Assembly (NCBI RefSeq): GCF_004022265.1 | Contig: NZ_SAVB01000005.1 | Location: 62,001-126,000, forward strand | DNA: 64,000 bases | Origin: Paenirhodobacter ferrireducens | GTDB taxonomy: Bacteria; Pseudomonadota; Alphaproteobacteria; Rhodobacterales; Rhodobacteraceae | Direction of reading: 5' to 3' | Shown: positions 32,669 through 48,231 of the stretch, piece after piece | How the letters are laid out: each line of letters starts with the position of its first letter | Position numbering within the stretch: the stretch's first letter is position 1 | Notes under the pieces: generated by a model | Told to the model about the DNA's origin: nothing | Databases searched by the model: none | What the model saw: only the letters and a program-made list of their open reading frames with translations | Made by a program: the position numbers and the translations under genes

Positions 32669-33883
32669 TCAGCGGCGGCGCAGGGCGCGGGGCGGAATGC
32701 CGGCGCGGGCACGCAGCTTCGCCACCACCCGGCGCGAGACGGTGATGCCCGCCTGCGCCAGTGCCTCGGCCAGTGCGCCGTCGGTCAGCGGTGCGCTCGG
32801 ATGCTCGGCGCCGACCAGCGCGCGGATGCGGGCGATGACGGCGGGGCCGGCCTCGGCATTCTCGGCCTGGGCGACGGCGCGGCCGAAGAAGGCCGCCAGC
32901 GGTTCGGTCCCGCGGGGCGTCTCGGCCGAGCCCGCGGCGACCATCCGGCTGACCGTGCTTTCATGCAGCCCGATCGCCGCGGCGACGGCGCGGCGGGTCA
33001 GCGGGCGCAGCGCGGCGGGGCCGTCGCGCAAGAAGCCCGGCTGTTCGCGGGCGAGCGCCGTGCCAAGCGCCAGAAGGGCAGCGTTGCGCCGCTCGACCGC
33101 GGCAATCAGCGCCTGTGCCGCGCGGCGCTCGCGCGCGGGGCCGGTGATCGCGGCGAGGGTCAGGCGCGGCGCGGTCTCGCGGTTCAGCCGCACGGCCCAG
33201 CCCGTGCCCTCGGGGGCGAAGACGAGATCGGCGATGCGGGCGCGGGCAGGGGGCGTGGCAAAGCCCGCGGCGGGGCGGGGGCTCAGCCCGCGCAGCTGGG
33301 CGAGCAGCGGCGCAAGCATGTCGGGCGGCAGCCCCGTGGCGCGGGCGAGCGCCGCGGGGCCGCCCTCGGCAAGGGCGGGAAGCGCCTCGAGGACGCGGCG
33401 CATCTCGGGCGCGATCGGGCTTTCCTCGGCCAGTTGCAGGGCGAGGCACTCGGCAAGCGAGCGGGCGAACAGCCCGCGTGGCTCGATCCGCTGCAGCTGC
33501 GCCAGCACCGCCTCGATATGCGCGGGCGGCAGGCCGAGGCGGGCGGCGATTGCGGGCGTGGGCGTGGCCAGAAACCCCTGCGCATCCAGCGCCTCGGCCA
33601 GCGCCAGCGCCACCGCGCGATCGGCAGGGGCGGGGACAAGCCCGGGCAGGCACTCGAACACATGGGCGATGAGCGAGGGCCCCTCGTCGGCGATCTCGAC
33701 ATCCTCAAGCGCCGCGGCCCTCGGCAGCTCGAGCCGCAGGAAGGGGTTCTCGGCCGCCGCCTCGCGCAGGCTCTCGCCCAGATCGAGGTTCGACAGGCCG
33801 AGCAGGCCGATCGCGCGCACCAGATCCTGGCTGAGGGTCAGCCGGGTCTGCTGGCGCAGCGCGATGTCCTGACGCAGCTTCAT
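32669..33883 (-). CDS. rpoN: Short sigma-54 (RpoN) paralogue
   Basis: 404 residues (E. coli RpoN is 477). Region I is recognisable (LRQQTRLTLSQDLVRAIGLLGLSNLDLGESLREAAAENPFL), as is the core-binding domain (about 80-230). The helix-turn-helix LTRRAVAAAIGLHESTVSRMVA is followed by the conserved TPRGTEPLAAFF, and the RpoN box is SRRVVAKLRARAGIP near residue 385 (consensus ARRTVAKYRE, so diverged). Its ATG overlaps the stop of the glutamine amidotransferase gene (ATGA), tying the sigma factor to the catabolic cluster that also contains a sigma-54 activator and promoter. Confidence 0.92.
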   Translation of the reverse strand: MKLRQDIALRQQTRLTLSQDLVRAIGLLGLSNLDLGESLREAAAENPFLRLELPRAAALEDVEIADEGPSLIAHVFECLPGLVPAPADRAVALALAEALDAQGFLATPTPAIAARLGLPPAHIEAVLAQLQRIEPRGLFARSLAECLALQLAEESPIAPEMRRVLEALPALAEGGPAALARATGLPPDMLAPLLAQLRGLSPRPAAGFATPPARARIADLVFAPEGTGWAVRLNRETAPRLTLAAITGPARERRAAQALIAAVERRNAALLALGTALAREQPGFLRDGPAALRPLTRRAVAAAIGLHESTVSRMVAAGSAETPRGTEPLAAFFGRAVAQAENAEAGPAVIARIRALVGAEHPSAPLTDGALAEALAQAGITVSRRVVAKLRARAGIPPRALRRR

Positions 33884-34605
33884 CCGTGCGCGATCTCCTC
33901 GCCGCGCAGCACGCGGGCAAAGCCGCGGGCGATGCGCTGCTGATCGAGCGGGCCCGACAGCGAGGCCATCGCCTCGGCATGCAGATCGTCGGCCAGCCGC
34001 ACCCCGTCGGGCGGGGTGATCAGCGCGCGCAGGAAGTCGAGGGTGAACTCCGGGTGGGCCTGCGACGAGATCGCCGGGAAGTCGCTGTAGAGAAAGCCGC
34101 CGTTCGGCGAGGCGGCGGTCGAGAACAGCCGCTCGGCCCGCGGCGGCGGCACCATGACCTGATCCTGATGGATCGAGAGCGCGGGCAGCGCGCCCGGCCC
34201 GAAGACCGCAGCCCCCGTCGCGCTCAGGTCGTGGTCATGCCGGCCCACCACCCAGCCGTCGGGCGACTTGCGCACCTCGCCGCCGAAGGCCTGCGCCATC
34301 ACCTGATGGCCGAAGCAGACGCCGGCGAGCGGCACCCGCGCCGCGGCGATGCGCTGCAACCCGGCGATCAGCGGTGCGATCCACGGCCGGTCCTCGTAGA
34401 CCCCGGCGCGCGAGCCGGTGACGAGGAAGGCGTCGAAGGCGGTCAGATCCTCGGGCACCGTCTCGCCCTCGGCGACGAAGACGCGGGTGAACCGCGCCTC
34501 GGGCAGCACGGGGGCAAGCCAGCGCGAGAACATATCGGCATAGCTGCCATGGACGGGCTCGAAGGCGGGGCCGGTGGTGTCGGTCTCGAGAATGCAGATC
34601 TTCAT
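33880..34605 (-). CDS. Class I glutamine amidotransferase-like hydrolase
   Basis: 241 residues with an intact triad: nucleophile C97 in GVCFGHQ, then H184 and E186 in SSQAHPEF. Free-standing class I amidotransferase proteins of this type hydrolyse gamma-glutamyl bonds (PuuD does this on gamma-glutamyl-GABA, though PuuD is a C26 relative). Next to two glutamine-synthetase-like ligases and an aldehyde dehydrogenase, the likely role is removal of the glutamyl group at the end of the pathway. Alternatively it could serve the ligases as an ammonia-releasing partner. It overlaps rpoN by 4 bp. Confidence 0.82.
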   Translation of the reverse strand: MKICILETDTTGPAFEPVHGSYADMFSRWLAPVLPEARFTRVFVAEGETVPEDLTAFDAFLVTGSRAGVYEDRPWIAPLIAGLQRIAAARVPLAGVCFGHQVMAQAFGGEVRKSPDGWVVGRHDHDLSATGAAVFGPGALPALSIHQDQVMVPPPRAERLFSTAASPNGGFLYSDFPAISSQAHPEFTLDFLRALITPPDGVRLADDLHAEAMASLSGPLDQQRIARGFARVLRGEEIAHG

Positions 34606-34619
34606 GGGGTCCTCGGAAG

Positions 34620-34642
34620 GGGCGGGGGAGGGCCCCCCGCCC
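34620..34642 (-). terminator. Intercistronic hairpin between aldehyde dehydrogenase and amidotransferase genes
   Basis: Perfect 9-bp stem GGGCGGGGG/CCCCCGCCC with a 5-base loop in the 44-bp gap. No U-run; probably lowers read-through into the amidotransferase and rpoN genes or protects the upstream mRNA. Confidence 0.55.
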
Positions 34643-34649
34643 GTTGCGC

Positions 34650-36146
34650 TCAGCTCAGTTCGATCCAGACGGATTTCGTCTGGGTGTATTGCGTCAGCGC
34701 CTCGAGGCACTTGTCGCGGCCGTTGCCCGATTGCTTGAAGCCGCCCCAGGGCGTGGTGGCATCGCCCGCCTCGTAGGCGTTGACCCAGACGATGCCGGCC
34801 TCGATCTCCTGCGCGAAGCGATGTGCGCTTTTCAGATTCGAGGTCCAGATCGCCGAGGCGAGGCCGTAGATCGTGTCGTTCGCGGTGGCAATCGCATGGT
34901 CGAGATCGTCGACCGGGATGATCGAGGCGACCGGGCCGAAGATTTCCTCCTGCGCGATGGTCATCTTGTTCGAGACATCGGTGAAGAGCGTCGGCTCGAC
35001 ATAGCAGCCGGCGTTGAACCCCGCCGGCACGCCGCCACCGAAGGCAAGCTTCGCGCCCTCGGCCTTGCCCTTCTCGATGTAGCCGAGCACCCGCGCCTGC
35101 TGTTCGGGGGTGACCAGCGGGCCCATGGTGGTCGCGGGGTCGAGCGGGTTGCCCGGCACATGCATGCCCTTCGCGGCCTCGGTGAAAAGCGCGACATACT
35201 CGTCATAGACCTTGCGCTCGACCAGGATGCGCGAGCCGGCCGAGCAGACCTCGCCCTGGTTGCCGTAGATGCCGGCTACGCCGAAGGTCGCGGCCTTCTC
35301 GAGGTCGTCGCAATCGGCCAGCACGATCTGCGGCGACTTGCCGCCGCATTCGGTGGTGACGCGCTTCATGTTCGACTGGCCGGCATAGACCATCATCAGC
35401 TTGCCGACCTCGCCCGAGCCGGTGAAGCCGATCTTGTCGACATCCATGTGCAGCGCGAGCGGCTTGCCGGTTTCCTCGCCAAAGCCGGTGACGACGTTGA
35501 AGACGCCGGCGGGCCCACCCGCCTCGCAGAACAGTCGGGCGAGCAGCAGCGCCGAGAGCGGCGACTGTTCGGCCGGTTTCAGCACCACCGAGTTGCCGCA
35601 AGACAGCGCCGGGGCCAGTTTCCAGGCCGCCATCATCAGCGGGTAGTTCCACGGCACCACGATGCCGCACACACCGAGCGGCTGGCGCAGGATGTAGTGC
35701 AGCGCATCGGCCTTGGTCGAGGTGACGACGCCCTCCATCTTGTCGATCGTCTCGGCAAAGAAGCGGATCGTCATCAGAGAGCCGGGGATGTCGATGTTGA
35801 GCATGTCCGAGATCGGCTTGCCCATGTCGAGCGTGTCGAGAAGCGCGAAATCCTCGGCGTGCGCTTCGATCAGATCGGCGAAGCGGCGCATCACCGACAT
35901 CCGGTCCGAGGGCGCCATGCGCGACCAGACGCCCGACTTGAACGCCTTCCTGGCGCTGGCGACGGCGCGGTCGACATCCTCGGCGGTGCCGCGGGCGAGC
36001 TCGGCCACGACCTCGCCGGTGGCGGGGTTCACGGTCTCGAACTTGCCGCCCTTCGCGGCATCGACGAAGGTGCCGTCGATGAACAGGCGGGTGTCGGGTT
36101 TCAGCGCGGCGGCGCGCGCCTGCCAGTCTTTCAGCGTCAGGGTCAT
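34650..36146 (-). CDS. NAD(P)-dependent aldehyde dehydrogenase (PuuC-like)
   Basis: 498 residues of the ALDH superfamily: NYPLMMAAWKLAPAL (cofactor-site start), FTGSGEVGKLMM, general base in TTECGGKSP and nucleophile cysteine in NQGEVCSAGSRI (near 300). Length and motifs resemble PuuC/gamma-glutamyl-gamma-aminobutyraldehyde dehydrogenases. AGGAGG precedes the ATG at 36146, so the upstream in-frame ATG at 36164 is rejected. In the cluster it should oxidise the aminoaldehyde, or its glutamyl conjugate, made by the P450 system. Confidence 0.9.
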   Translation of the reverse strand: MTLTLKDWQARAAALKPDTRLFIDGTFVDAAKGGKFETVNPATGEVVAELARGTAEDVDRAVASARKAFKSGVWSRMAPSDRMSVMRRFADLIEAHAEDFALLDTLDMGKPISDMLNIDIPGSLMTIRFFAETIDKMEGVVTSTKADALHYILRQPLGVCGIVVPWNYPLMMAAWKLAPALSCGNSVVLKPAEQSPLSALLLARLFCEAGGPAGVFNVVTGFGEETGKPLALHMDVDKIGFTGSGEVGKLMMVYAGQSNMKRVTTECGGKSPQIVLADCDDLEKAATFGVAGIYGNQGEVCSAGSRILVERKVYDEYVALFTEAAKGMHVPGNPLDPATTMGPLVTPEQQARVLGYIEKGKAEGAKLAFGGGVPAGFNAGCYVEPTLFTDVSNKMTIAQEEIFGPVASIIPVDDLDHAIATANDTIYGLASAIWTSNLKSAHRFAQEIEAGIVWVNAYEAGDATTPWGGFKQSGNGRDKCLEALTQYTQTKSVWIELS

Positions 36147-36160: not shown

Positions 36161-36979
36161 TCATTTCTGTTTTGTTTCTCGTGTTGCGACGACGGATGCG
36201 ACGATGAGGACGAGCGAGAGCAGGACGATGATGGTGCCGACGGCGTTGATCTCTGGGGTCACGCCGCGGCGCAGGGTGGAATAGATGTACATCGGCAAGG
36301 TGTTGTCTCGGCCGGTCAGGAAGAAGGTGACCGGGATCTCGTCGAAGCTGAGCACGAAGCTCAGCATGCCGGCGCCGACGATGGCGGTGCGGATGTTGGG
36401 GAGCGTGATGTCGACGAAGCTGCGCCAGGGCGAGGCGCCGAGATCGAAGGCCGCCTCCTCGAGCGATTTCGGCAGCCGCTGTAGCCTTGCATAGACCTGG
36501 GTCACGACGACGCCCAGAAGCGCCGTGGCATGGCCGAGGATCACCGTTTCCAGGCTGAGCGGGAAGCCGATCAGCTTGAACATGTTCAGCATCGAGATGC
36601 CGGTGACGATGCCGGGCAGGGTGATCGGCAGCAGGATCAGGCGGCGGAACACGGTCTTGCCGGGGAAGCTGACCTTGTGCAGCGCGAGTGCCGCGGGCAC
36701 GCCGACGCAGAGCGTCAGGATCGTCGCCCCGGTCGCCACGTAGAAGCTGTTGCGGATCGCGGCGAGCAGGTCGCCGTTCGAGGCAAGCTTGACGTACCAG
36801 TCGAGGGTGAAGCCCGACAGCGGCCAGGTCAGCGAGCGCGAGTCGTTGAACGAGAAGGCGATCAGCACCCAGATCGGGATGTAGAGGAACGCCATCAGCG
36901 CCGCGACGAAGGTCATGAAGGCGGTGTCGGCGCCATAGCGCGAGACGAGGCCCGGGGCGCGGTTCGGTGATTGTGCCAT
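36161..36979 (-). CDS. potC: Spermidine/putrescine-type ABC transporter permease
   Basis: 272 residues with six predicted helices. The cytoplasmic EAA loop is LEEAAFDLGASPWRSFVDITLPNIRTAI near residues 165-192. PotC-like by position and by the short N-terminus. The start follows the potB stop by 1 bp. It forms the channel with PotB. The substrate is probably an amine, judging from the neighbouring amine-catabolism genes, not necessarily putrescine. Confidence 0.88.
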   Translation of the reverse strand: MAQSPNRAPGLVSRYGADTAFMTFVAALMAFLYIPIWVLIAFSFNDSRSLTWPLSGFTLDWYVKLASNGDLLAAIRNSFYVATGATILTLCVGVPAALALHKVSFPGKTVFRRLILLPITLPGIVTGISMLNMFKLIGFPLSLETVILGHATALLGVVVTQVYARLQRLPKSLEEAAFDLGASPWRSFVDITLPNIRTAIVGAGMLSFVLSFDEIPVTFFLTGRDNTLPMYIYSTLRRGVTPEINAVGTIIVLLSLVLIVASVVATRETKQK

Positions 36980-36980
36980 G

Positions 36981-37847
36981 TCAGATCCCTCCCGTGGCGC
37001 CCTTGCGCTCCATCCGGTCGCTGAGCGAGACGATGGTCAGCACGACGACCAGCATCACGATGGCGAGCGCGGAGCCGAGCGGCCAGTTCAGTGCGGCGCC
37101 GAATTGCGTGGCGATGACGTTGGCGATCAGGTTGCCGTCCGGCCCGCCCACCAGGAAGGGCGCGATGAAGTCGCCGAACGACAGGCAGAAGGTGAGCGTC
37201 GCCCCCGCCGCGATGCCCGGTGCCGAGAGCGGCAGCGTCACCGTCCAGAAGCTGCGCCACGGCCCCATGCCCAGATCCGCCGCCGCCTCGGTCAGGTTCG
37301 CGGGGATCTTCTCGAGCGCGGTATAGATCGGCATCACCATGAATGGGATGAAGATATAGGTCAGCGTCACCACCATCGCGAACTGGTTGTAGAGGAAGAT
37401 CGAGGAGGGCTCGTCGATCAGGCCGATCGATTTCAGGAACGAGTTCAGCACCCCCTCGGTGCCGAGGATCGTCTTCCAGACATAGGCGCGCAGCAGATAG
37501 CTGACCCAAAGCGGCGCGATCACCGCCATGTAGAGCCAGGTGCGCAGCTTGGCCGAGCGGCAGCGGAACACCAGCCAATAGGCGAAGGGATAGGCGAGCA
37601 GCAGCGAGGCCACCGAGACCAGCACCGAGATCTTCAGCGTGCGCAGCAGCACCAGCACATATTGCGGGTCGGTGAAGAGGGTGACGTAATTGCCGAACTG
37701 GAAGGCCGGCACGAAGGTCGGGTATTTCTTCACCCAGAACGAGAAGGTGACGATGATCCCGTAGGGGAGCAGCATGAAGAGGGCGATCCAGAGCAGCGGA
37801 ATGCCCAGCACCATGCCCCCCGAGAGGTTGCGGCGGGCGTGGCTCAC
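36981..37847 (-). CDS. potB: Spermidine/putrescine-type ABC transporter permease
   Basis: 288 residues, six helices, EAA loop LTEAAADLGMGPWRSFWTVTLPLSAPGI near 180-207. It begins with GTG at 37847, overlapping the potA stop by 4 bases (GTGA); an internal ATG at residue 12 is less likely. Partner of PotC in the inner membrane. Confidence 0.88.
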   Translation of the reverse strand: MSHARRNLSGGMVLGIPLLWIALFMLLPYGIIVTFSFWVKKYPTFVPAFQFGNYVTLFTDPQYVLVLLRTLKISVLVSVASLLLAYPFAYWLVFRCRSAKLRTWLYMAVIAPLWVSYLLRAYVWKTILGTEGVLNSFLKSIGLIDEPSSIFLYNQFAMVVTLTYIFIPFMVMPIYTALEKIPANLTEAAADLGMGPWRSFWTVTLPLSAPGIAAGATLTFCLSFGDFIAPFLVGGPDGNLIANVIATQFGAALNWPLGSALAIVMLVVVLTIVSLSDRMERKGATGGI

Positions 37848-38941
37848 GGCGTGACCTCCCCCTCGAAGACGAAGACGTTGTGCGGCTCGACGGCGAGACG
37901 CAGGCTTTGTCCGAGCGGCGGCACGGCGCTGAGCGCGAGGCGGTCGGGAAGCAGGCTGTCGGTATAGACGCGGCTGCCGTCCGCGAGCTCGACCGCAAGC
38001 CGCAGCCCGAGCCCGTAATAGATCACCTCGGCGACCCGGCCCTCGAGCACGTTCTCGGCGGTCTCGCCCTCGGCGAGCAGGCGCACCTTCTCGGGGCGGC
38101 AGCCGGCGGTGACGGTGCTGCCCGCGACCAGCGGCGCATCGACGATCGCGCTCAGCCGGCCGCCGCCGATCTCGATCTCGGCGCGCTCGCCCGCACAGCG
38201 GATGACGCGGCCGGGCAGGAAGTTGGTGGTGCCGATGAAATTCGCGACATAGGGCGAGGCGGGGTGGTCATAAAGCTCCTGCGGGCGGCCCTGCTGGGCG
38301 ATGCGGCCCTTCTCCATCACCACGACGCGGTCGGACATCACCAGCGCCTCGGTCTGGTCGTGGGTGACCATGACGAAGGTGATGCCGACCTTCTCGTGCA
38401 GGTGCTTCATCTCGATCTGCATCTGCTCGCGGAGTTTCGCGTCAAGCGCCGAGAGCGGTTCGTCGAGCAGCAGCACCTTCGGTTCGCGCACGATGGCGCG
38501 GGCAAGGGCGATGCGCTGGCGCTGGCCGCCCGAGAGCTGCTGGGGCCGCAGCTTGACCTTGTCGAAGAGGCCGACGAGCTTCAGCGCATCATGCACCTTG
38601 GTCTCGATCTCGAGCCGGCCGAGGCCCTTGACCTTGAGCCCGTAGCCGACGTTCTCGCCCACGGTCATGTGCGGGAAGAGGGCATAGTCCTGGAACACCA
38701 TGTTGACCTCGCGCTTGTAGGGCGGGTCCCAGGTGACGTCCTTGTCGGCGAGGCGGATGGAGCCGGCGGTGGGCGTCTCGAAGCCGCCGATCATCCGCAG
38801 GAGCGTGGATTTCCCGCAGCCCGAGGGGCCGAGCAGCGTGACGAATTCGCCGTCCTCGACCGTCAGCGAGACATTGTCCACGCCGATGATCGTCGGGCTG
38901 TAGTGCTTGGAGATGTTCTCCAGTTCGATGATTGCGGCCAT
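37844..38941 (-). CDS. potA: Spermidine/putrescine-type ABC transporter ATP-binding protein
   Basis: 365 residues: ABC domain with Walker A GPSGCGKST (near 37), Q-loop VFQDYALFPHMTV, signature LSGGQRQRIALARAI, Walker B VLLLDEPLSALD and H-switch THDQTEAL, then a C-terminal TOBE domain from about 275 (VEPHNVFVFEGE). Standard for PotA/CUT1-like importers. It follows potD after 112 bp containing a stem-loop. Confidence 0.92.
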   Translation of the reverse strand: MAAIIELENISKHYSPTIIGVDNVSLTVEDGEFVTLLGPSGCGKSTLLRMIGGFETPTAGSIRLADKDVTWDPPYKREVNMVFQDYALFPHMTVGENVGYGLKVKGLGRLEIETKVHDALKLVGLFDKVKLRPQQLSGGQRQRIALARAIVREPKVLLLDEPLSALDAKLREQMQIEMKHLHEKVGITFVMVTHDQTEALVMSDRVVVMEKGRIAQQGRPQELYDHPASPYVANFIGTTNFLPGRVIRCAGERAEIEIGGGRLSAIVDAPLVAGSTVTAGCRPEKVRLLAEGETAENVLEGRVAEVIYYGLGLRLAVELADGSRVYTDSLLPDRLALSAVPPLGQSLRLAVEPHNVFVFEGEVTP

Positions 38942-39053: not shown

Positions 39054-40100
39054 TCATTGCGCCTTCACGGCGTTCCAGGCGTTGGTGTAGGCCTCGAAGC
39101 GGTCACCGAGCGGCTGCCAGACCATCAGGCTGTCGAGATAGGCCGGGTCGTCCTGATGCAGGTCCTTGTACTGCTCGGGCGTCATGCAGGCCTTGGCCGA
39201 GACCGGGTTGGTCACCGAATAGCCGTTGATGTTGGCGACACCGCACTGGCCGAGCGGCGACAGCTGCATGTTCAGGAACTTGTAGGCGCATTCCTTGTTC
39301 GGCGTGCCCTTGACCACCATCCAGCTGTCCATCCAGCCCTCGGCGCCTTCCTTCGGGATGAACTCGGTGACCTTGATGCCCTCGGCCTTCAGCAGCCCCG
39401 ACTGGTAGCCCGCCCAGGTGTTCGAGATCACCACTTCGCCGGCTTTGTAGAGGTCGACGAGCTCGCCCGCGGTGGCCCAGTACTTGCGGATCAGCGGTTT
39501 CTGCTCGAGCAGCTTCTTCTGCGCGGCGGCGATCTGCTCGTCGGTCAGGTTGTAGATGTCCATGTCGCCGTTCAGCCGCGCCGCGACATAGATTGAGGAC
39601 TTGTCGTCCCACAGCGCGACCTTGCCCTTCAGCGCGGGGTTCCACAGGTCCGCGATCGAGGTCGGCGGCGTGGTGAAGGCATCGTCGCGATACATGAAGG
39701 CGATCGCGCCCCAGACATAGGGCATGCCGTAATATTCGCCGTCCTTCTGGATCCCGTCGAGGTCGCGGAATTTCTTGTAGATGTTGTTCCACTCGCTGAT
39801 CTTCGCGGTGTCGAGCGGCTCGACGAAGTCGAGGTCGATCATCAGCTTGGTGGTGTCGATCGAGGGGGTGATCAGGTCATAGACGCCACCGCCCGACATC
39901 AGCTTGGGCGCGAAGTCGTCGTTCGAACCGACATAGGTCGCGTTCACCTTGCAGCCCGACTCTTCCTCGAACTTCGAGATGAAGGAGGGGTCGGCATAGC
40001 CTTCCCAGGTCAGCACGTTGAGCGTGCCTTCGGCAAGCGCCGGGGCGGCGGTGGTCAGGGCGAGGGCGCCAAGCGCACCGAGCAGGATCTTCCGGGTCAT
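39054..40100 (-). CDS. potD: Polyamine/amine ABC transporter substrate-binding protein
   Basis: 348 residues with signal peptide (MTRKILLGALGALALTTAAPALA). The mature part begins TLNVLTWEGYADPSFISKFEEESG, the standard start of PotD/SpuD-type proteins, with YDLITPS and WNNI further on. An aspartate-rich ligand site is expected for cationic amines. First of the four transporter genes, 31 bp after the sigma-54 activator gene. Confidence 0.9.
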   Translation of the reverse strand: MTRKILLGALGALALTTAAPALAEGTLNVLTWEGYADPSFISKFEEESGCKVNATYVGSNDDFAPKLMSGGGVYDLITPSIDTTKLMIDLDFVEPLDTAKISEWNNIYKKFRDLDGIQKDGEYYGMPYVWGAIAFMYRDDAFTTPPTSIADLWNPALKGKVALWDDKSSIYVAARLNGDMDIYNLTDEQIAAAQKKLLEQKPLIRKYWATAGELVDLYKAGEVVISNTWAGYQSGLLKAEGIKVTEFIPKEGAEGWMDSWMVVKGTPNKECAYKFLNMQLSPLGQCGVANINGYSVTNPVSAKACMTPEQYKDLHQDDPAYLDSLMVWQPLGDRFEAYTNAWNAVKAQ

Positions 40101-40131: not shown

Positions 40132-41514
<1,383 letters not shown>

Positions 41515-41532: not shown

Positions 41533-42723
41533 TCAGCGCTCCGCCCGGAAGCGGGCGATGCGGCCCGCGGGGGCACCCGCGAGCGCCGGGCCGCGCTTCA
41601 GCCGCAGGCTGAGCACCAGACACTCGGTCTCGCGCAGGCGCAGCGGCCGGGCCTGCATCTCGGCCCGCACCCCGGTTTCCGAGCGCAGCGGCTCCACCGT
41701 CCAGGTCCGGTCGGGATGACCTGGCAGCCGGCCCGCCGCGGCCTCGAACAGCGCCTCGAGCGGCAGGGGCAGCTCGATGTAATCGCCCAGCTCGCGCGTC
41801 GCATAGGCATCGGTCGCGAGCGACAGCAGTTCTTCCGCCGCAAGGTTCGTGCGCAGCAGGTGCCCGGCGCGGTCGATCACCAGCACCGCATCGGGCAGCG
41901 CCGTCAGCACCGCCTCGAGCGCCTCGATCTCGTCGCGCAGCACCGCGGCGCGGCGGGCGTGTTTCGAGACGTCGCGCACCGTGCCCCACATCCGGGTCAG
42001 CCGGTTGCCGCGGATATGGCCGCGCACGTCGTTCTCGACCTCGATCCAGACCCCGTCATAGCGCAGATCGTGCGAGGGCGAGGCGGTGACGTCGAAACTT
42101 GCGCGCACCAGACGGCGGACGAAATCCTCGTTTTCCGGCGTGCGCGGGAAGGTCTCGTGCACCGGCAATTCGTTGAAATCGCGCCCGGGCGGGGTGCGGT
42201 AGAGCCGTGCCATCGCGTCGTTGCAAAAGCGCCAGCGCGGGCCGTTCTCGAAGACCTGCCGGATCGTCTCCTGCTCGGGCGCGGACAGGTCGACGGGCTC
42301 GGCCCATTCCATGCACCAGCCCGCATCGTCCGAGGTGGCGAGGATCGAGGCGATCACCTCGTTCTCCTCGGCCAGCCGCTCGACCGCGTCGATCATCCCG
42401 CCGCGCGGCCATTTGAAGAGCCGCAGGCAGGGGCCCGCGAGCGGGTCCTCGACCCGCTCGATCACCGCCGTCACCGGCAGCAGCGCCGCGCCGGCACAGC
42501 GCAGCTCGAGCGCCAGCACCTGCGGCCAGGGGCCGGTGAGGGCAAACAGCGTCTCCAGCCGCTCGCGCGCGGCGAGCGGATAGATCAGCGACCACGGACG
42601 GCCTGCGGCCGCGCCCGGGGCAAGCCCGAGCGCGGTGTCCTGTGCCGGGCTCGCGCGCAGGATCGTCCCGTCGCGCGCGAGCCAGTCTTCCAGCATCGAA
42701 CCTTGCGGTTCCCGTGCTCCCAT
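41533..42723 (-). CDS. PAS-domain sensory protein without an output domain
   Basis: 396 residues with two or three PAS-like modules: about 10-95, a central one about 130-250 (FCNDAMARLYRTPP; WIEVENDVRGHIRG; MWGTVRDVS) and a third about 255-380 (LEAVLTALPDAVLVIDRAGHLLRTNLAAEELL). I see no kinase, cyclase, DNA-binding or membrane segment. The third module resembles the PAS domain of the neighbouring sigma-54 activator (both read TALPDxxLVxDxAGxxxxxNxxAA), hinting at duplication and heteromeric sensing. It lies 18 bp upstream of that activator gene. A GGGGGAG motif precedes the ATG at 42723. Confidence 0.75.
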   Translation of the reverse strand: MGAREPQGSMLEDWLARDGTILRASPAQDTALGLAPGAAAGRPWSLIYPLAARERLETLFALTGPWPQVLALELRCAGAALLPVTAVIERVEDPLAGPCLRLFKWPRGGMIDAVERLAEENEVIASILATSDDAGWCMEWAEPVDLSAPEQETIRQVFENGPRWRFCNDAMARLYRTPPGRDFNELPVHETFPRTPENEDFVRRLVRASFDVTASPSHDLRYDGVWIEVENDVRGHIRGNRLTRMWGTVRDVSKHARRAAVLRDEIEALEAVLTALPDAVLVIDRAGHLLRTNLAAEELLSLATDAYATRELGDYIELPLPLEALFEAAAGRLPGHPDRTWTVEPLRSETGVRAEMQARPLRLRETECLVLSLRLKRGPALAGAPAGRIARFRAER

Positions 42724-42751: not shown

Positions 42752-44233
42752 TCAGGGCACGCAGTGCAAGTAGCGTTCCACATCCCAATTGGTGACCTCT
42801 CGCAGGAAGCGCGTCCACTCATCCTGCTTGTATTCGTCGAAGACGTCGTAGAGCCGGCCGGGAAGTGCCGAACGGATGACCTCGTCCTTTTCCAAAGCGG
42901 TCAGTGCATCGCGCAGATTGAGAGGGATGAGTTTCACCGGCTCTCCCGACTGCCAGACCTCGGTGACGTTGCGCGATTCGGGGGCGCCCGGGTCGATATT
43001 GTTGCGGATGCCGTCGTCCATCGCCTTCAGCAGCGCGCCGCAGAAGAGATGCGGGTTCACCATGCTGTCGACGGCGCGGAACTCGAAGCGGTCGGGCGAC
43101 GAGATGCGGATCGTGCAGGAGCGGTTCTGCAGACCCCAGTTCGCGCCGATCGGCGCCCAGAGGCCGAAGTCGTTGAAGCGACGATAGGAGTTCACCGTCG
43201 AGGCGCCGAGGCAGGTGAGCGCGTCGATGTGCTTGAGCGAGCCGCCGAGGATGTGGTGGCCCAGCTCCGTCGGCAGCCAGCCGCCGTCGGTGTTCTCGAA
43301 CTCGTTCACCCCGCCTTTTGAGTAGTGCCACAGCTCTTCCATGCCCGGCAGCTCGCCCGGGATCAGCTGTTGCAACTCGCGCGAGCCGCCGGTCCAGACC
43401 GAGCAGTTGTGGTGACAACCGTTCGCGGCATAGCCCATGAAGGGTTTCGCCATGAAACAGGCAATGAGCCCGTTCTGCCGCGCCACCTCGGCGCAGATCT
43501 GCCGGTAGGTGGTCATCCGGTCGCAGGTCGGCAGCGCGTCGTCGAACTGGTAGTTCAGCTCGATCTGGCCGGGCGCGTCCTCGCAATCGCCCTGGATCAT
43601 GTCGAGGCCCATGGCGCGGGCGTAATCCGAGACCTGCATCCAGATGTTGCGGGCGCTCTCGAACTGGCCGATGTGATAGGCATAGGCCTCGGTGATGCCC
43701 TCGTAGGGGCGGACCTCGCCGTCCTTCGGCTTGAGCCACAGCATCTCGGGCTCGAGGCCGACCCGCAGCGTGAGGCCGTTATGCGCCTCGCGGAACTCGC
43801 GGTCGAAGCGCTTGAGGTTGCCGCGGGTGTCGTATTCGTAATGCTGGCCGGGGAAATTCGGGTCCTCGAGGCTGTAGTAGAGCGTGCAGAAGACGCGGGC
43901 GACGCGCTTGTCCCAGGGCAGCTGGCAGAAGGTGTCGGGATCGGGCAGCGCGATGCATTCCATCGCGTTGCTGTCGAAGCCGATCAGGTTGCCCTTGAAG
44001 TTCGGGGTGACGTCGGCGACGCCGCCCATCCAGGTCTGCACGCCCTTGCGCGCCTGGGTCTCCCAGTGCCGCGCCGGGGCGGCCTTGCCCATCACGCGGC
44101 CGGTGATCGAGATGTATTGGTAGTAGATGTAATCGACGCCAAGCGCGTCGATCTTGCGGCGCACGCGCTCGACGAGCGCGGCACGGCCGGGCGCCTCGAT
44201 CTCGCGGTGATAGTCGGTGTCGGTGGTGGTCAT
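42752..44233 (-). CDS. Glutamine-synthetase-like gamma-glutamylamide ligase 1
   Basis: 493 residues of the GS superfamily: N-terminal beta-grasp part, metal-site GLEPEMLWL (near 190), DCEDAPGQIELNYQFDDAL, the ATP/glutamate region ANGCHHNCSVW and NRSCTIRISSPDRFEFRAVDSMVNPHL. True GlnA would be about 470 residues with an adenylylated Tyr loop I do not see. GS relatives such as PuuA, GmaS and IpuC make gamma-glutamyl amides from amine substrates with ATP. Placed in tandem with a second, shorter GS-like gene and behind a P450 system, so an amine ligase role is inferred. Confidence 0.85.
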   Translation of the reverse strand: MTTTDTDYHREIEAPGRAALVERVRRKIDALGVDYIYYQYISITGRVMGKAAPARHWETQARKGVQTWMGGVADVTPNFKGNLIGFDSNAMECIALPDPDTFCQLPWDKRVARVFCTLYYSLEDPNFPGQHYEYDTRGNLKRFDREFREAHNGLTLRVGLEPEMLWLKPKDGEVRPYEGITEAYAYHIGQFESARNIWMQVSDYARAMGLDMIQGDCEDAPGQIELNYQFDDALPTCDRMTTYRQICAEVARQNGLIACFMAKPFMGYAANGCHHNCSVWTGGSRELQQLIPGELPGMEELWHYSKGGVNEFENTDGGWLPTELGHHILGGSLKHIDALTCLGASTVNSYRRFNDFGLWAPIGANWGLQNRSCTIRISSPDRFEFRAVDSMVNPHLFCGALLKAMDDGIRNNIDPGAPESRNVTEVWQSGEPVKLIPLNLRDALTALEKDEVIRSALPGRLYDVFDEYKQDEWTRFLREVTNWDVERYLHCVP

Positions 44234-44259: not shown

Positions 44260-45576
44260 TCAGCCTTCGAGATAGCGGGCGCGTTCTTCGGCGCTGACCG
44301 CTTTCGCGAGGCTGGCGTATTCGGCGCGGCAGGCAGCCGCGAAATTCTGGCAGAAGGCCTGCCCGAAGAGGCGCGCGGCATCGGCCGAGGCGTCGAGGCG
44401 GTCGGCCGCCTCGGCAAGGTCGCGCGGAAAGCGTTGGGCGCCCTCGGGCACGACATCGGGATGCGTGGCGGTGGCGGGGGCGGGGGTGGCAAGCTGCCGC
44501 TCGATCCCGTCGAGCCCCGCGCCCAGCATCAGCGCAAGCGTGAGATAGGGGTTGCAGTCGGCCGGCGGCACCCGGAATTCGAGTCGCGCGCGGTCGCCCG
44601 CATGGGGGGCCGAGCGCACCGCAACGGTGAACGGGTATTCGGCCCAGGTCAGCGATTTCGGCGCCCAGCTGCCCGGCGCAAGCCGGCGATAGGCGTTCAC
44701 CGTCGAGGTGCACATCGCGAAGGCCTGCGGCACGATCTGCATCATGCCGGCGATGAACGAGCCCGCAAGCGCCGAGGTCTTCGCCTCGGGGTCCGAGAAC
44801 AGGTTCTTGCCGGTGGCCTTGTCGCGCAGCGAGACGGTGCAATGCCCGCCGATGCCGGGGTAGTCCGCGCCGAGATAGGGCATGAAGCTCGCCGTCTTGC
44901 CCATCTTGCGGGCATAGGACCGCGCCGCCATGCGGAAGAAGGCGGCGTCATCGGCCGCGCGCAGCCCCTCGGTCGCGCCGAGCGTCGCCTCGAGGCAGCC
45001 CGGCCCGAGCTCGACGCCCAGACCGTAGAGCGCGACGTCATGGCCGAGGATCTCGGCCTCCATCCCGGCGATGAACGCGGCATGGGTGTTTGCCGTGGCG
45101 CCCGACCAGCACTTGTTGTCGGGGGCGAATTTCGCAAGGCCGGCGAAGCCCTTCTCGCGCACCGAGGTGTCGGTCTCGTCGAGCACGATCACCTCGAATT
45201 CGAAGGCCGCGTCGACGGTGAAGCCCATGGCGGCGGCGCGGTCGATCTGCCGGCGCAGCACCTCGCGCGGCATCAGCTCCTTCGCGGCACCCGAGAGCTC
45301 GGCGATCACCGTGACGGCGCCGGGTTCGGACGGGTTGCGGCGCATCGAACTCGGGTCGATCTCCACCGTCTCGGTGTAGAAGGCATCGCCGCCATAGAGG
45401 TTGTCGGCGCTGTCCCAATAGGCGAGGACGTTGGCAAAGCGCGCGTCCGTCGCCCAGTCGAGGAATTGCGGGCGGCGCAGCCGGCGTTCGCGGAACACCG
45501 AGGCATAGTCGAACTGGCCGACATGGACGATCTCGGCATTCAGGGCGTCAAGGGCGGCGGTCAGGGCGTGGGTCAT
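44260..45576 (-). CDS. Glutamine-synthetase-like gamma-glutamylamide ligase 2
   Basis: 438 residues. GS catalytic motifs are FEFEV (near 125), LGPGCLEATLGATEGLRAAD, IGGHCTVSLRDKATGKNLF and RLEFRVPPADCNPYLTLALMLGAGLDGI. In the usual E-x-GPGQ-E motif Gln is replaced by Cys (GPGCLE). It differs clearly from ligase 1, so the two are not a recent duplication; they could form a mixed oligomer or act on different amines. It is 26 bp upstream of ligase 1 and 7 bp downstream of the reductase gene. Confidence 0.85.
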   Translation of the reverse strand: MTHALTAALDALNAEIVHVGQFDYASVFRERRLRRPQFLDWATDARFANVLAYWDSADNLYGGDAFYTETVEIDPSSMRRNPSEPGAVTVIAELSGAAKELMPREVLRRQIDRAAAMGFTVDAAFEFEVIVLDETDTSVREKGFAGLAKFAPDNKCWSGATANTHAAFIAGMEAEILGHDVALYGLGVELGPGCLEATLGATEGLRAADDAAFFRMAARSYARKMGKTASFMPYLGADYPGIGGHCTVSLRDKATGKNLFSDPEAKTSALAGSFIAGMMQIVPQAFAMCTSTVNAYRRLAPGSWAPKSLTWAEYPFTVAVRSAPHAGDRARLEFRVPPADCNPYLTLALMLGAGLDGIERQLATPAPATATHPDVVPEGAQRFPRDLAEAADRLDASADAARLFGQAFCQNFAAACRAEYASLAKAVSAEERARYLEG

Positions 45577-45583
45577 CGGGGCC

Positions 45584-46801
45584 TCAGGCGGTAAGCGTTT
45601 CGGTCAGCGCCGCGTCAAGACGGGCGCGGGCCTTTGCGAGGGCGGCAGGGTTCGCGCCGAGGCCGAGCACGCCGACCGGCTCGCCCCCGCGCAGGTATTC
45701 GACGATCACCGGCGCGCGGCCGACAAGCGACAGCTCGCCTTCCAGCACCCGGCAGGCGTCGGCGAGAGAGGGCGCGCCGAAGGCCTGCAGCCGCATCCCG
45801 TGCTGGTCCGACCAGAACGAGGGCATCGGTGCGAAGCGGGTGGCAAGCGCGGTGCCCGCGGCCTCGGCGGCCAGCGTCTCGCCCACCCGTTTCGCGGTCT
45901 GGCCGGGCACGCACCAATGCTCGGTGCGGCGCGCCTCGGGGCCGAAGAGCGGGTTGACGAAGCGGGCGACGTCGCCCACGGCCATCAGCCCTTCGGCGCC
46001 GGGGGCGACCATCCGGTCGTCGACCAGCACGCCGTCGCGCAGATCGGCGCCCGATCCGGCAAGCCATTCGACATTCGGGTGCGAGCCGAGCGCCTCGACG
46101 ATCACCTCGGCGGCAAGCGCCTGACCGTCGTCGAGGATCACGCCCTCGTCCGAGAAGCCCGCGACCGAACGGCCGGTGAGCAGCACGACGCCATGGGCGC
46201 GGTGCAGCGCCGCCATCGCCGCGGCGACGCGCGGGCCGAGGGCGCGCAGCATCGGTTGCGGCGACGGCTCGACGATCGTCGCCTCGAGACCGAGCTTGCG
46301 GCCGGTCGCGGCGATCTCGCAGCCGATGAAGCCGCCGCCGATCACCACCATCCGCGCGCCGGGGCGCAGGCTCGGGGCCAGGCGGACGAGGTCGTCGAAG
46401 CTGCGCAGCACGTGGCGGCGGGCTTCGGCGCCCGGAAGGGGCAGGCGGCGCGGGCGCAGCCCGGTCGCTGCGATCACCCGCTCGCCCGGCACCAGCGCAC
46501 CATCGGCGAGCCGCACGCCGCCCGGTTCGAGCGCCACCGCGCCCGACCCGAGACGCAGGCTCAGCGCTGCGGGCGAAAGCTTCGAGCGCAGCAGCAGCTT
46601 GCCGAACACCGCCTCGCGCGCCGTGGTGTCGCGGGCGAGCGTCTCGGCCGCCTCCTTCGACAGCGGCGGGCGGTTGTAGGGGGCAAGCGGCTCGTCGCCC
46701 ACAAGGGTGATCCGCGCCGCGGGCAGGGCGGCGTGAACCGCCTCTGCCGTGCGCAGGCCCGCAAGCGAAGCCCCGACGATGGTGATGCGCGGCGCGGTCA
46801 T
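45584..46801 (-). CDS. FAD-dependent ferredoxin reductase for the P450 system
   Basis: 405 residues of the putidaredoxin/rhodocoxin reductase family: FAD motif VGASLAGLRTAEAV, NRPPLSKE, NAD motif VVIGGGFIGCEIAATGRKLG (near 150) and VMAVGDVARF-like LMAVGDVARFVNP (near 275), plus a C-terminal reductase domain. It should transfer electrons from NADH to the small ferredoxin encoded 4 bp upstream. The P450-ferredoxin-reductase order makes a complete three-component class I P450 system. Confidence 0.9.
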   Translation of the reverse strand: MTAPRITIVGASLAGLRTAEAVHAALPAARITLVGDEPLAPYNRPPLSKEAAETLARDTTAREAVFGKLLLRSKLSPAALSLRLGSGAVALEPGGVRLADGALVPGERVIAATGLRPRRLPLPGAEARRHVLRSFDDLVRLAPSLRPGARMVVIGGGFIGCEIAATGRKLGLEATIVEPSPQPMLRALGPRVAAAMAALHRAHGVVLLTGRSVAGFSDEGVILDDGQALAAEVIVEALGSHPNVEWLAGSGADLRDGVLVDDRMVAPGAEGLMAVGDVARFVNPLFGPEARRTEHWCVPGQTAKRVGETLAAEAAGTALATRFAPMPSFWSDQHGMRLQAFGAPSLADACRVLEGELSLVGRAPVIVEYLRGGEPVGVLGLGANPAALAKARARLDAALTETLTA

Positions 46802-46805
46802 GGCG

Positions 46806-46991
46806 TCAGCCGAGAAGGATCGCCTGCTCGGGGCAGGCGTCGGCGGCGGCTTCGACATCGGCGCGCTGCGCCTCGTCCACTTCGGCGACCCAGACGAGCC
46901 CGCCGTCGTCGTCGAAGGAGAACACCTGAGGCGCGGCGATCACGCATTGGCCGTGCAGCAGGCAGATCGACATGTCGACATCAACTTTCAT
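46806..46991 (-). CDS. [3Fe-4S] ferredoxin of the P450 system
   Basis: 61 residues with cluster ligands C10 and C16 in CLLHGQC and C53 in ACPEQA. The second cysteine of a [4Fe-4S] motif is replaced by H13, the mark of [3Fe-4S] ferredoxins that serve soluble bacterial P450s. It sits between the P450 and the reductase genes and should shuttle single electrons between them. Confidence 0.92.
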   Translation of the reverse strand: MKVDVDMSICLLHGQCVIAAPQVFSFDDDGGLVWVAEVDEAQRADVEAAADACPEQAILLG

Positions 46992-47031
46992 TTTCGCTTC
47001 CCTGTGTCTGATGGGGTCTGGGTGGCCTGGA

Positions 47032-48231
47032 TCAGGCCGGATCGAAGGCGATCGGCAGGGTGATGGCGCCGGTGTTGCCGCTGTCGGCCAGCCATTTCAC
47101 CTCGCCGTTGAAGCGCGGGTTCTTCAGCCGCTGGGCAAGCAGCTTCAGCGCCTCGGTCATGTCGCCGCGGGCGATGAAATGGCCCAGGCAATGGTGCGCG
47201 CCGCCGCCAAAGCCGAAATGCGGCTTGCGCTCGGCGGTGATGTCGAAGCCGGGTTCGGGGAAGACCGCCGGGTCCGAAGTCGCCGATTGCGAGAACAGGT
47301 GGATCGTGGTGCCGGCCTTGATCGGCAGGTCGTTGTAGGTGAAGTCCTCGGTCGCCTCGCGGGTGACCCAGGTCACCGTCGGGCGCACGCGCATCACCTC
47401 CTCGACCGCGGCGCGGGCCAGATCGGGCTGTTCGGCCAGAAGCGCCCATTGCTCGGGGTGCTCGATGAAGGTCGCCATCGCCAGACCGAGCTGGTTGCGG
47501 GTGGTGTCGATGCCGCCGAAGATTGCCAGCACGATCATGTCGAGCAGCTCCTGATCCGAGAGCTGCGACTTGTCGGCATTCGCCTGCACCAGCATGCCGA
47601 CGAAATCGTCGGACGGATTGGCGCGCTTCAGCGCCACCAGATCCTCGGCGTATTTCAGTAGCCGCGCGGTCGCCGCCTCGACCGTGGCGAGGTCCTGCTT
47701 GAAGGTCACGCCAAGCGCGAGGCCCATCTCGGCGGCGATGTCGGCAAGCTCGCGCCAGGTCTCGAAGGGCAGGCCGAGCAGGTCGCAGATGACGCCGGTG
47801 GCATAGGGTTCGGTGAACTCGGCGATGAAGTCGCATTCGCCCTTCGCGGCGAAGCCGTCGATCAGCTTGTTGGCGAGCGCCTGGAACTTCGGCCGCAGCT
47901 CGGTGATGAGCTTGGGCGAGAAGGCGGGGTTGGCCATCCGGCGCAGGCGCGAATGGGTCTCGCCCTCCTGCGACAGCAGCATCGCGCCCCACCAGCGGGC
48001 GAAGAGGCCGCCGTGCACACCGCTCAGCTCGGGCCAGCGATAGGAGCCCTGGCGCAGCTTCGGATGGCGCAGCAGCTTCATCACGTCATCATAGCGCAGC
48101 ACCGCGATGCCGTAGTTGGTGCGGGCATACCAGCTCGCCTCGCGGGCCTCGAGGACCGCCTGCGAGCGGATCGAGAAGGTGGGGTCGGCAACGTCCAGAT
48201 AGGGCGCTTCGGCGAGGGTTTCTTGCGTCAT
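47032..48231 (-). CDS. Soluble cytochrome P450
   Basis: 399 residues, no membrane anchor. I-helix oxygen motif GGIDTT (239-244), ExxR as E278-R281, heme loop FGFGGGAHHCLGHFIAR with C348 as iron ligand. Class I bacterial P450 by its ferredoxin and reductase neighbours. The set P450, [3Fe-4S] ferredoxin, reductase and GS-like gene recalls the mycobacterial mor/pip operons, where the P450 hydroxylates morpholine, piperidine or pyrrolidine to open the ring. A related reaction on an amine or its gamma-glutamyl conjugate is inferred. It is the first gene behind the sigma-54 promoter. Confidence 0.93.
   Translation of the reverse strand: MTQETLAEAPYLDVADPTFSIRSQAVLEAREASWYARTNYGIAVLRYDDVMKLLRHPKLRQGSYRWPELSGVHGGLFARWWGAMLLSQEGETHSRLRRMANPAFSPKLITELRPKFQALANKLIDGFAAKGECDFIAEFTEPYATGVICDLLGLPFETWRELADIAAEMGLALGVTFKQDLATVEAATARLLKYAEDLVALKRANPSDDFVGMLVQANADKSQLSDQELLDMIVLAIFGGIDTTRNQLGLAMATFIEHPEQWALLAEQPDLARAAVEEVMRVRPTVTWVTREATEDFTYNDLPIKAGTTIHLFSQSATSDPAVFPEPGFDITAERKPHFGFGGGAHHCLGHFIARGDMTEALKLLAQRLKNPRFNGEVKWLADSGNTGAITLPIAFDPA

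What the first reader, a model, noticed from the sequence alone, without database searches (positions are those of the whole stretch)
32669..48231. Self-contained sigma-54 amine catabolic cluster: P450, two GS-like ligases, transporter, activator and sigma factor
Seen: fourteen genes in one direction, spaced -4 to +112 bp, with the order P450, ferredoxin, FAD reductase, GS-like x2, PAS protein, sigma-54 activator, PotDABC-type transporter, aldehyde dehydrogenase, class I amidotransferase, RpoN paralogue. Known: mycobacterial mor/pip operons pair a P450, [3Fe-4S] ferredoxin, reductase and GS-like protein for secondary cyclic amines; the Puu pathway uses a GS-like ligase, aldehyde dehydrogenase and glutamyl hydrolase. 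Inferred: the amine is taken up, gamma-glutamylated, oxidised by the P450 in place of PuuB, then oxidised by the dehydrogenase and released by the amidotransferase. I know of no described system with this full set.
Basis: partly seen in the sequence, partly recalled or inferred. Interest (0 to 1): 0.88.

Follow-up and report, generated by a model that had tools for sequence, protein, structure and literature searches.

The report
Amine operon carrying its own sigma-54
A block of fourteen bacterial genes looks like a complete kit for taking up and breaking down a small nitrogen compound (probably a ring-shaped amine), and it carries a private transcription factor whose DNA-reading part seems to have changed together with the operon's promoter.

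Summary
The fourteen minus-strand genes are real (window 32669-48231, gaps -4 to +112 bp). The same order recurs in Thioclava and Gemmobacter. The P450 next to a glutamine-synthetase-like gene (GS2) recurs in 72 of 80 named loci, Pseudomonas and actinobacteria included. A related cluster lies on a plasmid of Paracoccus sp. TOH, cited as a piperazine degrader. I favour a cyclic or other secondary amine, gamma-glutamylated, oxygenated and opened, then finished by PuuC/PuuD-like steps; substrate and order are inferred. GS1 lacks a conserved arginine (40 of 40), so 'two ligases' is uncertain. The larger novelty is regulatory: PAS protein, activator and RpoN look like a dedicated sigma-54 set. Cluster RpoNs form one clade; in 7 of 17 genomes it is the only RpoN found, and the cluster activator the only GAFTGA activator among 35 stretches examined. 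RpoN box and -24 element co-vary (SRRV/TGGAA 13 of 13, ARRT/TGGCA 15 of 15, (P/T)RRR/TGGCC 3 of 3), partly through shared ancestry. No experiment supports function yet.

The parts
48276..48291 (-). sigma-54 -24/-12 promoter TGGAATGCTTCTTGCA, 60 to 45 bp before the P450 start
   Evidence: a -24/-12 site precedes the P450 in 31 of the 32 named loci with an activator hit (exception L085, whose activator-like hit lies 8 kb away). In the own genome TGGMAYGN4TTGCW has 2 matches, both in the cluster, against 3 for the reversed pattern, so only the location is notable
48415..48432 (-). candidate activator-binding repeat GGCTGCAGGCGATGCAGC, about 200 bp upstream of the P450
   Evidence: GCTGCA/TGCAGC-type words upstream in 18 of 27 loci against a mean of 3.5 in shuffles; motif chosen after looking, weak
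47032..48231 (-). cytochrome P450 (399 aa)
   Evidence: Pfam p450; heme motif FGFGGGxHHCxG and I-helix DTT invariant in 11 aligned relatives; best solved chains 3p3l/3p3o, 256 bits
46806..46991 (-). ferredoxin, 61 aa, CX5C...CP pattern of [3Fe-4S] type
   Evidence: 58-98% identical in the 22 loci with the core; cluster type inferred from the cysteine pattern; no Pfam/NCBIfam match to the fragment scanned
45584..46801 (-). FAD-dependent ferredoxin reductase
   Evidence: Pfam Pyr_redox_2 and Reductase_C
44260..45576 (-). GS1: GS-like protein, IpuC-related (34%), metal ligands kept, Arg339 equivalent replaced by Phe
   Evidence: Pfam Gln-synt_C
42752..44233 (-). GS2: GS-like amine ligase; metal ligands and phosphate-side arginines kept, Glu327 equivalent replaced by Trp
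41533..42696 (-). sensor of three PAS-like domains without output domain
   Evidence: Pfam PAS (one domain over the cut-off); AlphaFold model pLDDT 86.9, three PAS-like units by my reading of its secondary structure; best Foldseek match PpsR without HTH, whole-chain TM 0.26
40132..41514 (-). sigma-54 activator (PAS, AAA+ with GAFTGA, HTH)
   Evidence: Pfam Sigma54_activat 207.8 bits; GAFTGA
39054..40100 (-). periplasmic binding protein, PotD/PotF/YdcS class
37844..38941 (-). ABC transporter ATPase
   Evidence: Pfam ABC_tran, TOBE_2
36981..37847 (-). ABC permease 1
   Evidence: Pfam BPD_transp_1
36161..36979 (-). ABC permease 2
   Evidence: Pfam BPD_transp_1
34650..36146 (-). aldehyde dehydrogenase, closest NCBIfam model PuuC (583.5 bits, below its cut-off 850)
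33880..34605 (-). class I amidotransferase with GVCFGHQ nucleophile motif; proposed gamma-glutamyl hydrolase
   Evidence: Pfam GATase; sequence
32669..33883 (-). cluster RpoN (sigma-54) with divergent RpoN box SRRVVAKLR
   Evidence: Pfam AID, CBD, DBD over cut-off; clade of 17 rows at 100/98; box

Best explanation
This is a self-contained catabolic operon for a small amine, most likely a cyclic or other secondary amine (pyrrolidine/piperidine/piperazine class). SHOWN by sequence: the gene set, its conservation, the conserved -24/-12 site, and the joint divergence of the RpoN box and the -24 element. INFERRED: the ABC importer takes up the amine; GS2 joins it to glutamate with ATP; the P450, fed by reductase and ferredoxin, hydroxylates the carbon next to nitrogen, so that the amide opens to a gamma-glutamyl amino-aldehyde, the same kind of intermediate as in the Puu pathway; the PuuC-like dehydrogenase oxidises it; the amidotransferase releases glutamate and an amino acid. 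GS1 is a required partner or second ligase. The triple-PAS protein senses amine, product or redox state and controls the activator, which drives the cluster's own sigma-54 at the promoter in front of the P450. Because rpoN is the last gene, induction would feed forward. The RpoN box has changed together with the promoter, insulating the operon from other sigma-54 circuits.
For: Conservation: all 14 genes in order in own genome, G114, G087, G061; P450+Fd+FdR+GS1+GS2+PAS+activator in 22 of 80 named loci, P450 with a GS2-like gene in 72 of 80. Oxygenase slot is exchangeable: GS1-GS2 is followed by a PhyH-family Fe/2OG oxygenase in 5 of the 7 other class-level GS1 loci. Uptake slot: this ABC importer in 30, an APC permease in 30, both in 0 of 80. 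End of pathway: in actinobacterial relatives an ALDH 50-52% identical to the window's (in L090 the best NCBIfam model is PuuC, 596 bits against cut-off 850), Peptidase_C26 (PuuD family) proteins in L128, and nearby genes whose best NCBIfam models are GABA transaminase and succinate-glutarate CoA-transferase (L128) and SSADH (L095), all below cut-off. Substrate: Paracoccus sp. TOH plasmid p2 holds P450 (63.6%), GS1 (61.3%), GS2, ALDH (65%), amidotransferases, PAS, activator and rpoN, and the strain is cited as a piperazine degrader (title in a reference list). Regulation: -24/-12 site before the P450 in 31 of 32 named loci with an activator hit; box/promoter table of 33 clusters 13/13, 15/15, 3/3 plus two singletons; cluster RpoN clade 100/98; only RpoN found in 7 of 17 genomes, and in those seven the cluster activator is the only one with GAFTGA among 35 activator-type stretches.
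Against: No biochemical or genetic result for any gene of this cluster; no substrate tested. Strain TOH could degrade piperazine by other genes. Several relatives point to methylated amines instead: L018 (GS2-P450 beside Tmm-, Tdm- and N-methylglutamate-synthase-like genes), FMN-oxidoreductases in L034 and L036, GcvT-type genes in L033, SHMT and DAO in TOH. Eight of 80 P450 loci show no GS2-like gene (L086 and L097 with 10 kb searched downstream), and four more distant P450s (44-46%) have none in their stretch, so the P450 may work on a free amine. The window's GAT matched PF00117, not Peptidase_C26. The GABA-type genes of L128 lie on the opposite strand. Box/promoter co-variation is partly shared ancestry: the SRRV and RRR classes lie each in one clade, and three promoter sites (L057, L059, L061) match only 7-8 of 12 consensus bases, a score also reached upstream of P450s without an activator. 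In ten genomes other RpoNs are present, so which RpoN reads the promoter is open.
Confidence: 0.6

Rival explanations
1. Primary alkylamine pathway of the Ipu type: GS-like ligase makes a gamma-glutamyl alkylamide, P450 hydroxylates the alkyl chain, amidotransferase releases an amino alcohol.
For: Same three enzyme types in the described Ipu pathway (PMC6776027 passages; pTC1/pTC2 gene order); among the proteins compared, GS1's best match outside its own family is IpuC (34%).
Against: The P450 is only 28% identical to both pTC1 and pTC2 P450s, and GS2, the constant partner, only 25-26% to IpuC. PuuC-like dehydrogenase and GABA-type genes near some relatives suggest an amino-aldehyde rather than an amino alcohol.
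Confidence: 0.2
2. Methylated-amine pathway: GS2 makes gamma-glutamyl-dimethylamide, P450 N-demethylates it to gamma-glutamylmethylamide and formaldehyde.
For: L018 places a GS2-P450 pair beside amt-, Tmm-, Tdm-, NMGS- and GMAS-like genes; L034 and L036 have FMN-oxidoreductases (that of L034 of trimethylamine-dehydrogenase appearance) near GS1-GS2-PhyH; L033 has a GcvT-type gene; TOH has SHMT and DAO genes (several names by recall).
Against: The L018 pair is a distant branch (51-52% identity); the window cluster has a PuuC-like ALDH and an ABC importer, and I saw no methylated-amine genes directly beside it (by eye), although a Rieske-like pair lies 20-36 kb away.
Confidence: 0.14
3. P450 attacks the free amine first (as reported for MorA), and the GS-like protein traps the opened amino-aldehyde by glutamylation.
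For: PMC9477822 (passages) cites recombinant MorA with its redox partners as oxidising morpholine; P450 relatives exist without a GS-like gene nearby.
Against: GS2 is linked to the P450 in 72 of 80 loci and also to an unrelated oxygenase family (PhyH), which is easier to explain if the oxygenase acts on the glutamylated compound.
Confidence: 0.3
4. The linked rpoN is an ordinary redundant paralogue that shares promoters with other RpoNs; promoter differences are drift.
For: Ten of 17 genomes also hold other RpoNs; the deviant box classes fall in one clade.
Against: Paracoccus TOH has a linked rpoN from outside the clade, with the standard box and a standard -24 element; deviant boxes within the clade (SRRT, PRRM) go with deviant, though weak, -24 elements.
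Confidence: 0.2

Closest known systems
Ipu isopropylamine pathway (Pseudomonas KIE171; Paenarthrobacter aurescens TC1 pTC1/pTC2)
   Same: GS-like gamma-glutamylamide synthetase, P450 with ferredoxin and reductase, amidotransferase, in one cluster; proposed oxidation of the glutamylated amine (PMC6776027 passages; the original 2002 paper was not held)
   Different: P450 28% identical; one GS-like gene; no ABC importer or sigma-54 set annotated in the stretches seen
Mycobacterial pip/mor loci (PipA/MorA, CYP151; pyrrolidine, piperidine, morpholine)
   Same: P450, ferredoxin, GS-like gene, GntR regulator; Mycolicibacterium relatives L127/L128 show GntR/FCD-P450-Fd-GS2, the order I recall for pip
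   Different: No importer of this type, PAS/activator/rpoN or GS1 in L127/L128; PipA/MorA sequences could not be obtained, so identity to them is untested
E. coli Puu pathway
   Same: GS-like ligase, PuuC-like aldehyde dehydrogenase, glutamyl hydrolase
   Different: P450 instead of PuuB; GAT not Peptidase_C26 in the window; NCBIfam gamma-glutamylputrescine synthetase and PuuC models hit below cut-off
Aniline/1-naphthylamine systems (AtdA, TdnQ, NpaA1)
   Same: GS-like ligase plus amidotransferase plus oxygenase, amine glutamylated first (PMC11335346 passages)
   Different: Rieske dioxygenase and aromatic amines
Specialised RpoN paralogues of Cereibacter sphaeroides (RpoN1-nif, RpoN2-fla, RpoN3-AprX)
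   Same: each studied RpoN works with its own activator; the -11 base matters (PMC11999139 passages)
   Different: there the passages describe nif, flagellar and xrpA targets, not an rpoN inside a catabolic operon; here the RpoN box itself varies with the -24 element, and the copy can be the only one found

Membership tests
Ipu-type N-glutamylated amine pathway | GS-like ligase, P450 system and amidotransferase clustered | tested here: met
Ipu-type N-glutamylated amine pathway | orthologous P450 | tested here: not met
   28% identity over 278 and 315 residues
Ipu-type N-glutamylated amine pathway | isopropylamine as substrate | not testable with these tools
   needs growth or enzyme assay
CYP151 (PipA/MorA) | over 40% identity to PipA/MorA | tested here: inconclusive
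Puu pathway | PuuA equivalog score | tested here: not met
   GGputSyn model 138.5 (GS1) and 192.6 bits (GS2) against cut-off 650
Puu pathway | PuuC equivalog score | tested here: not met
   583.5 bits against 850, though the best model
active GS-type ligase (GS2) | metal and phosphate residues of GS | tested here: met
   Glu129/131/212/220/357, His269, Arg321, Arg344 in 76 of 76; Arg339 and Arg359 Arg 47 or Lys 29; Asn264, Asp50 and Ser53 not kept, as in GMAS-like L164 and IpuC for the first two
active GS-type ligase (GS1) | Arg339 equivalent | tested here: not met
   Phe 34, Tyr 6 of 40; metal ligands kept 40 of 40
sigma-54 (RpoN) | AID, core-binding and DNA-binding domains above cut-off | tested here: met
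sigma-54 (RpoN) | RpoN box ARRTVAKYR | tested here: not met
   0 of 17 cluster-clade rows; 21 of 27 other rows and TOH have it
sigma-54-dependent operon | -24/-12 promoter and GAFTGA activator | tested here: met

The most novel reading that the evidence does not exclude
A catabolic operon has captured and privatised sigma-54: its own RpoN has a changed RpoN box that reads a changed -24 element (TGGAAC, or TGGCCC in Gemmobacter relatives), making a natural orthogonal sigma-54 with a regulon of essentially one operon, in some genomes the only sigma-54 present; the operon itself degrades a cyclic amine by gamma-glutamyl tagging, P450 (or, in relatives, Fe/2OG oxygenase) ring opening and a Puu-like finish.
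Probability: 0.42. Interest if true: 0.85.

Novelty: new variant of a known kind. Interest (0 to 1): 0.72.

Why it matters
It makes two open questions testable. First, what the GS-like gene beside P450s of secondary-amine catabolism does: the P450-GS2 pair, and its PhyH counterpart, predict that the glutamylated amine is the oxygenase substrate. Second, how sigma-54 recognises the -24 element: natural box/promoter pairs (SRRV-TGGAA, ARRT-TGGCA, RRR-TGGCC) are candidates for a specificity code and for orthogonal regulators. It also suggests that sigma-54, usually a broad factor, can persist as a private factor of one operon.

Tried and rejected
Polyamine catabolism proper: considered because of the PotD-type importer and Puu-like genes; lowered because NCBIfam cut-offs are missed, no PuuB-like gene is in the cluster, and relatives swap the importer for an APC permease. 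Second sigma-54 site TGGAACGCTACTTGCA at 42765-42780: lies in the GS2 coding end; among the loci seen only in S. hankyongi (L049) besides the own genome; judged fortuitous. Downstream FAD-oxidoreductase as a fifteenth gene: not conserved. GS1 as a dead enzyme: not adopted, since all metal ligands are kept in 40 of 40. Identifying PipA through Mycolicibacterium genomes: no identified pip locus; the stretches were not used further. Papers PMC127573 and PMC93808 not held. Ten paper searches listed no paper that I recognised as describing this full set; of the hits I opened passages of six; subscription papers and preprints are not in the library. The promoter association was first tabulated as 0 of 17 against 14 of 14 with CA at -23/-22; that left out L051, L052 and L056 (contigs cut before rpoN) and Paracoccus TOH, which has a linked rpoN and CA. 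One search added L056 (G677, link of its rpoN unproven) and TOH; L051, L052 and the further clusters L082 (site TGGCAC), L014 (same species as L049) stayed out of the table. GS residue counts left out stretches with weak scores or stops. In the RpoN tree, near-copies were dropped, G672's among them. While rechecking I corrected: promoter coordinates, 21 (not 20) of 27 boxes, 11 (not 10) P450 promoters, and replaced an incomplete GAFTGA inspection; the methylated-amine rival was raised from 0.12 to 0.14 after listing all neighbours that favour it.

Full report
WHAT IS THERE. The window lies at G000:C57:62001-126000 of a 4.07 Mb genome, same genus as G114, whose contig length equals that of Sinirhodobacter hankyongi. 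All fourteen genes exist on the minus strand from 48231 down to 32669, with gaps of -4 to +112 bp after start correction. A sigma-54 site, TGGAATGCTTCTTGCA, starts 60 bp before the P450. Of six loci tested, the genes flanking the cluster were found only in the same species' loci L014 and L049, so I take the unit to be these fourteen genes.

CONSERVATION. With the P450 as query, 10 of 292 genomes of the order, own included, matched at E<=1e-60. With GS1 as query, 8 of 385 genomes of the class, own included, matched at E<=1e-80. So the oxygenase next to the ligase pair is exchangeable.

NAMED RELATIVES. The P450 alignment brought 80 named loci, the best of 361. A tblastn scan with window and reference proteins found a GS2-like gene in 72 of 80; of the eight misses, L086 and L097 have 10 kb downstream, six have under 4 kb. 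GS1 is in 36, Fd+FdR in 46, PAS and activator in 32 each, and P450+Fd+FdR+GS1+GS2+PAS+activator in 22; flanks end before GAT and rpoN in most loci, so these were not counted here. The ABC importer (by its binding protein) is in 30, an APC permease in 30, both in none, neither in 20. Pseudomonas and actinobacterial loci mostly show a GntR/FCD regulator (35 of 80; Pfam on L128). I called genes in six such loci. In L128 two Peptidase_C26 proteins are present, and genes on the opposite strand have GABA transaminase and succinate-glutarate CoA-transferase as best NCBIfam models; L095 has an SSADH-like gene; all below curated cut-offs. This fits release of an omega-amino acid such as GABA or 5-aminovalerate, without proving it.

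SUBSTRATE CLUE. Plasmid p2 of Paracoccus sp. TOH has GS1 61%, P450 64% (in one open frame with a diflavin-reductase-like part), GS2, ALDH 65%, two amidotransferases, SHMT, DAO, PAS, activator and rpoN. A reference list holds the title 'Degradation of piperazine by Paracoccus sp. TOH isolated from activated sludge' (PMC5172442, one passage). I did not see that paper; nothing seen here ties these genes to piperazine. Against it, several relatives have methylated-amine-type neighbours (L018, L033, L034, L036).

ENZYMES. GS2 keeps the metal ligands, Arg321 and Arg344 in 76 of 76 sequences, with Arg or Lys at 339 and 359; Glu327 is Trp (40) or Phe (36), Trp also in the genome's L164 (GMAS-like by my reading) and in IpuC. 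GS1 keeps the metal ligands, Arg321, Arg344 and Arg359 but has Phe (34) or Tyr (6) for Arg339 and Trp for Glu327 in 40 of 40 (Salmonella numbering from recall, mapped on the genome's own GlnA by motifs). GS1 is 34% identical to IpuC of pTC1, GS2 26%. The P450 is 28% identical to the two P450s of the TC1 ipu clusters. The PAS protein models as three PAS-like units with no output domain (pLDDT 86.9; best Foldseek match PpsR without HTH, low whole-chain TM-scores).

PRIVATE SIGMA-54. Of 33 genomes reached through the loci, 31 have RpoN. In seven (G674, G676, G679, G681, G682, G684, G686; two are MAGs, the assemblies are drafts) it is the only RpoN found; the other ten hold further RpoNs. Fourteen genomes have an RpoN elsewhere and none at the cluster; G677's single copy is unplaced because the contig ends; the two Roseovarius genomes (L088, L118) have none, and their clusters lack PAS/activator and show an Lrp-like gene. 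The cluster RpoNs, with G677's copy and without the near-copy of G672, form one clade (17 rows, 100/98). In the seven genomes I examined 35 stretches, namely the hits to Sigma54_activat above about 92 bits: GAFTGA is in seven, each the cluster activator; the others read GAFPGA, GAFAGA, GAFSGA or show no such loop. Weaker hits (64 bits and less) were not examined. In the own genome the bEBP beside the other rpoN also has GAFTGA.

BOX AND PROMOTER. In 33 clusters tabulated, RpoN box SRRV goes with AA at -23/-22 in 13 of 13, ARRT with CA in 15 of 15, (P/T)RRR with CC in 3 of 3; SRRT goes with AC and PRRM with TC, one each. Where no rpoN is linked, the box is that of the genome's standard RpoN. 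Base -11 is T in 13 of 15 ARRT cases and in none of the other 18. Paracoccus TOH is a useful control: linked rpoN, but outside the clade, with standard box and standard -24 element; its -11 base is A, as in the cluster type. Three sites (L057, L059, L061) are weak. Sites TGGAAYN4CTTGCA number 17 in 16 genomes against 10 for the reversed pattern; 11 of the 17 are P450 promoters, 2 lie in GS2 ends, 4 elsewhere. Shared ancestry limits the independence of these counts; Fisher values ignore it.

WHAT IS KNOWN. Ipu joins IpuC, a P450 system and an amidotransferase (PMC6776027, passages). Aniline and 1-naphthylamine pathways glutamylate before dioxygenation (PMC11335346, passages). Pip/mor P450s act on cyclic amines; a passage of PMC9477822 cites MorA as oxidising morpholine. 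Cereibacter RpoN paralogues with private activators are described (PMC11999139, passages), so dedicated RpoNs are not new; an rpoN as the last gene of a catabolic operon with a matching box/promoter change did not appear in the ten searches made.

VERDICT. A real, widely conserved amine-type operon; metabolic logic a variant of known pathways; regulatory arrangement the more surprising part. Function, substrate and orthogonality are untested.

Noticed in passing
L234 (G000:C58:181000-200650), rpoN at about 18225-19505: The genome's other RpoN lies at a contig end beside hydantoinase A/B-type subunits (acetone-carboxylase-like), a GAF/sigma-54 activator with GAFTGA and a CobW-like gene, with box SRRAVANHR: a second operon with a seemingly private sigma-54. 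Ciceribacter naphthalenivorans L235 looks alike.
   Followed up: partly
L034:12522-13391, L035:6657-7529, L036:7526-8404, L037:12272-13144, L038:7015-7881: A PhyH-family Fe/2OG oxygenase takes the place of the P450 next to the GS1-GS2 pair.
   Followed up: partly
L260:683-3380 (Paracoccus sp. TOH plasmid p2): Plasmid-borne activator-rpoN pair with an RpoN outside the cluster clade, behind a related amine cluster: apparently independent linkage of sigma-54 to such a cluster.
   Followed up: partly
L018:881-3558 and 6831-19901: GS2-P450 pair beside Tmm-, Tdm-, DMGDH-, NMGS- and GMAS-like genes, a methylated-amine region (names partly from recall).
   Followed up: no
L043:13250-16162: The P450 shares one open frame with a diflavin-reductase-like domain (970 aa) in Paracoccus sp. 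TOH; the gene table lists only the reductase part.
   Followed up: no
L044:11328-13772 (Gordonia sp. KTR9 pGKT2): One open frame holds a GS2-like domain and an FAD-oxidoreductase domain (814 aa) behind the P450; only the second part is annotated.
   Followed up: no
window 42765-42780: Second sigma-54-like site TGGAACGCTACTTGCA inside the GS2 3' end, before the PAS gene, shared with S. hankyongi only among the loci.
   Followed up: partly
window 11691-14025: Two genes that look by eye like a Rieske oxygenase and its reductase, followed by methionine-synthase-like genes (14113-17886); possibly a demethylation function (no family search run).
   Followed up: no
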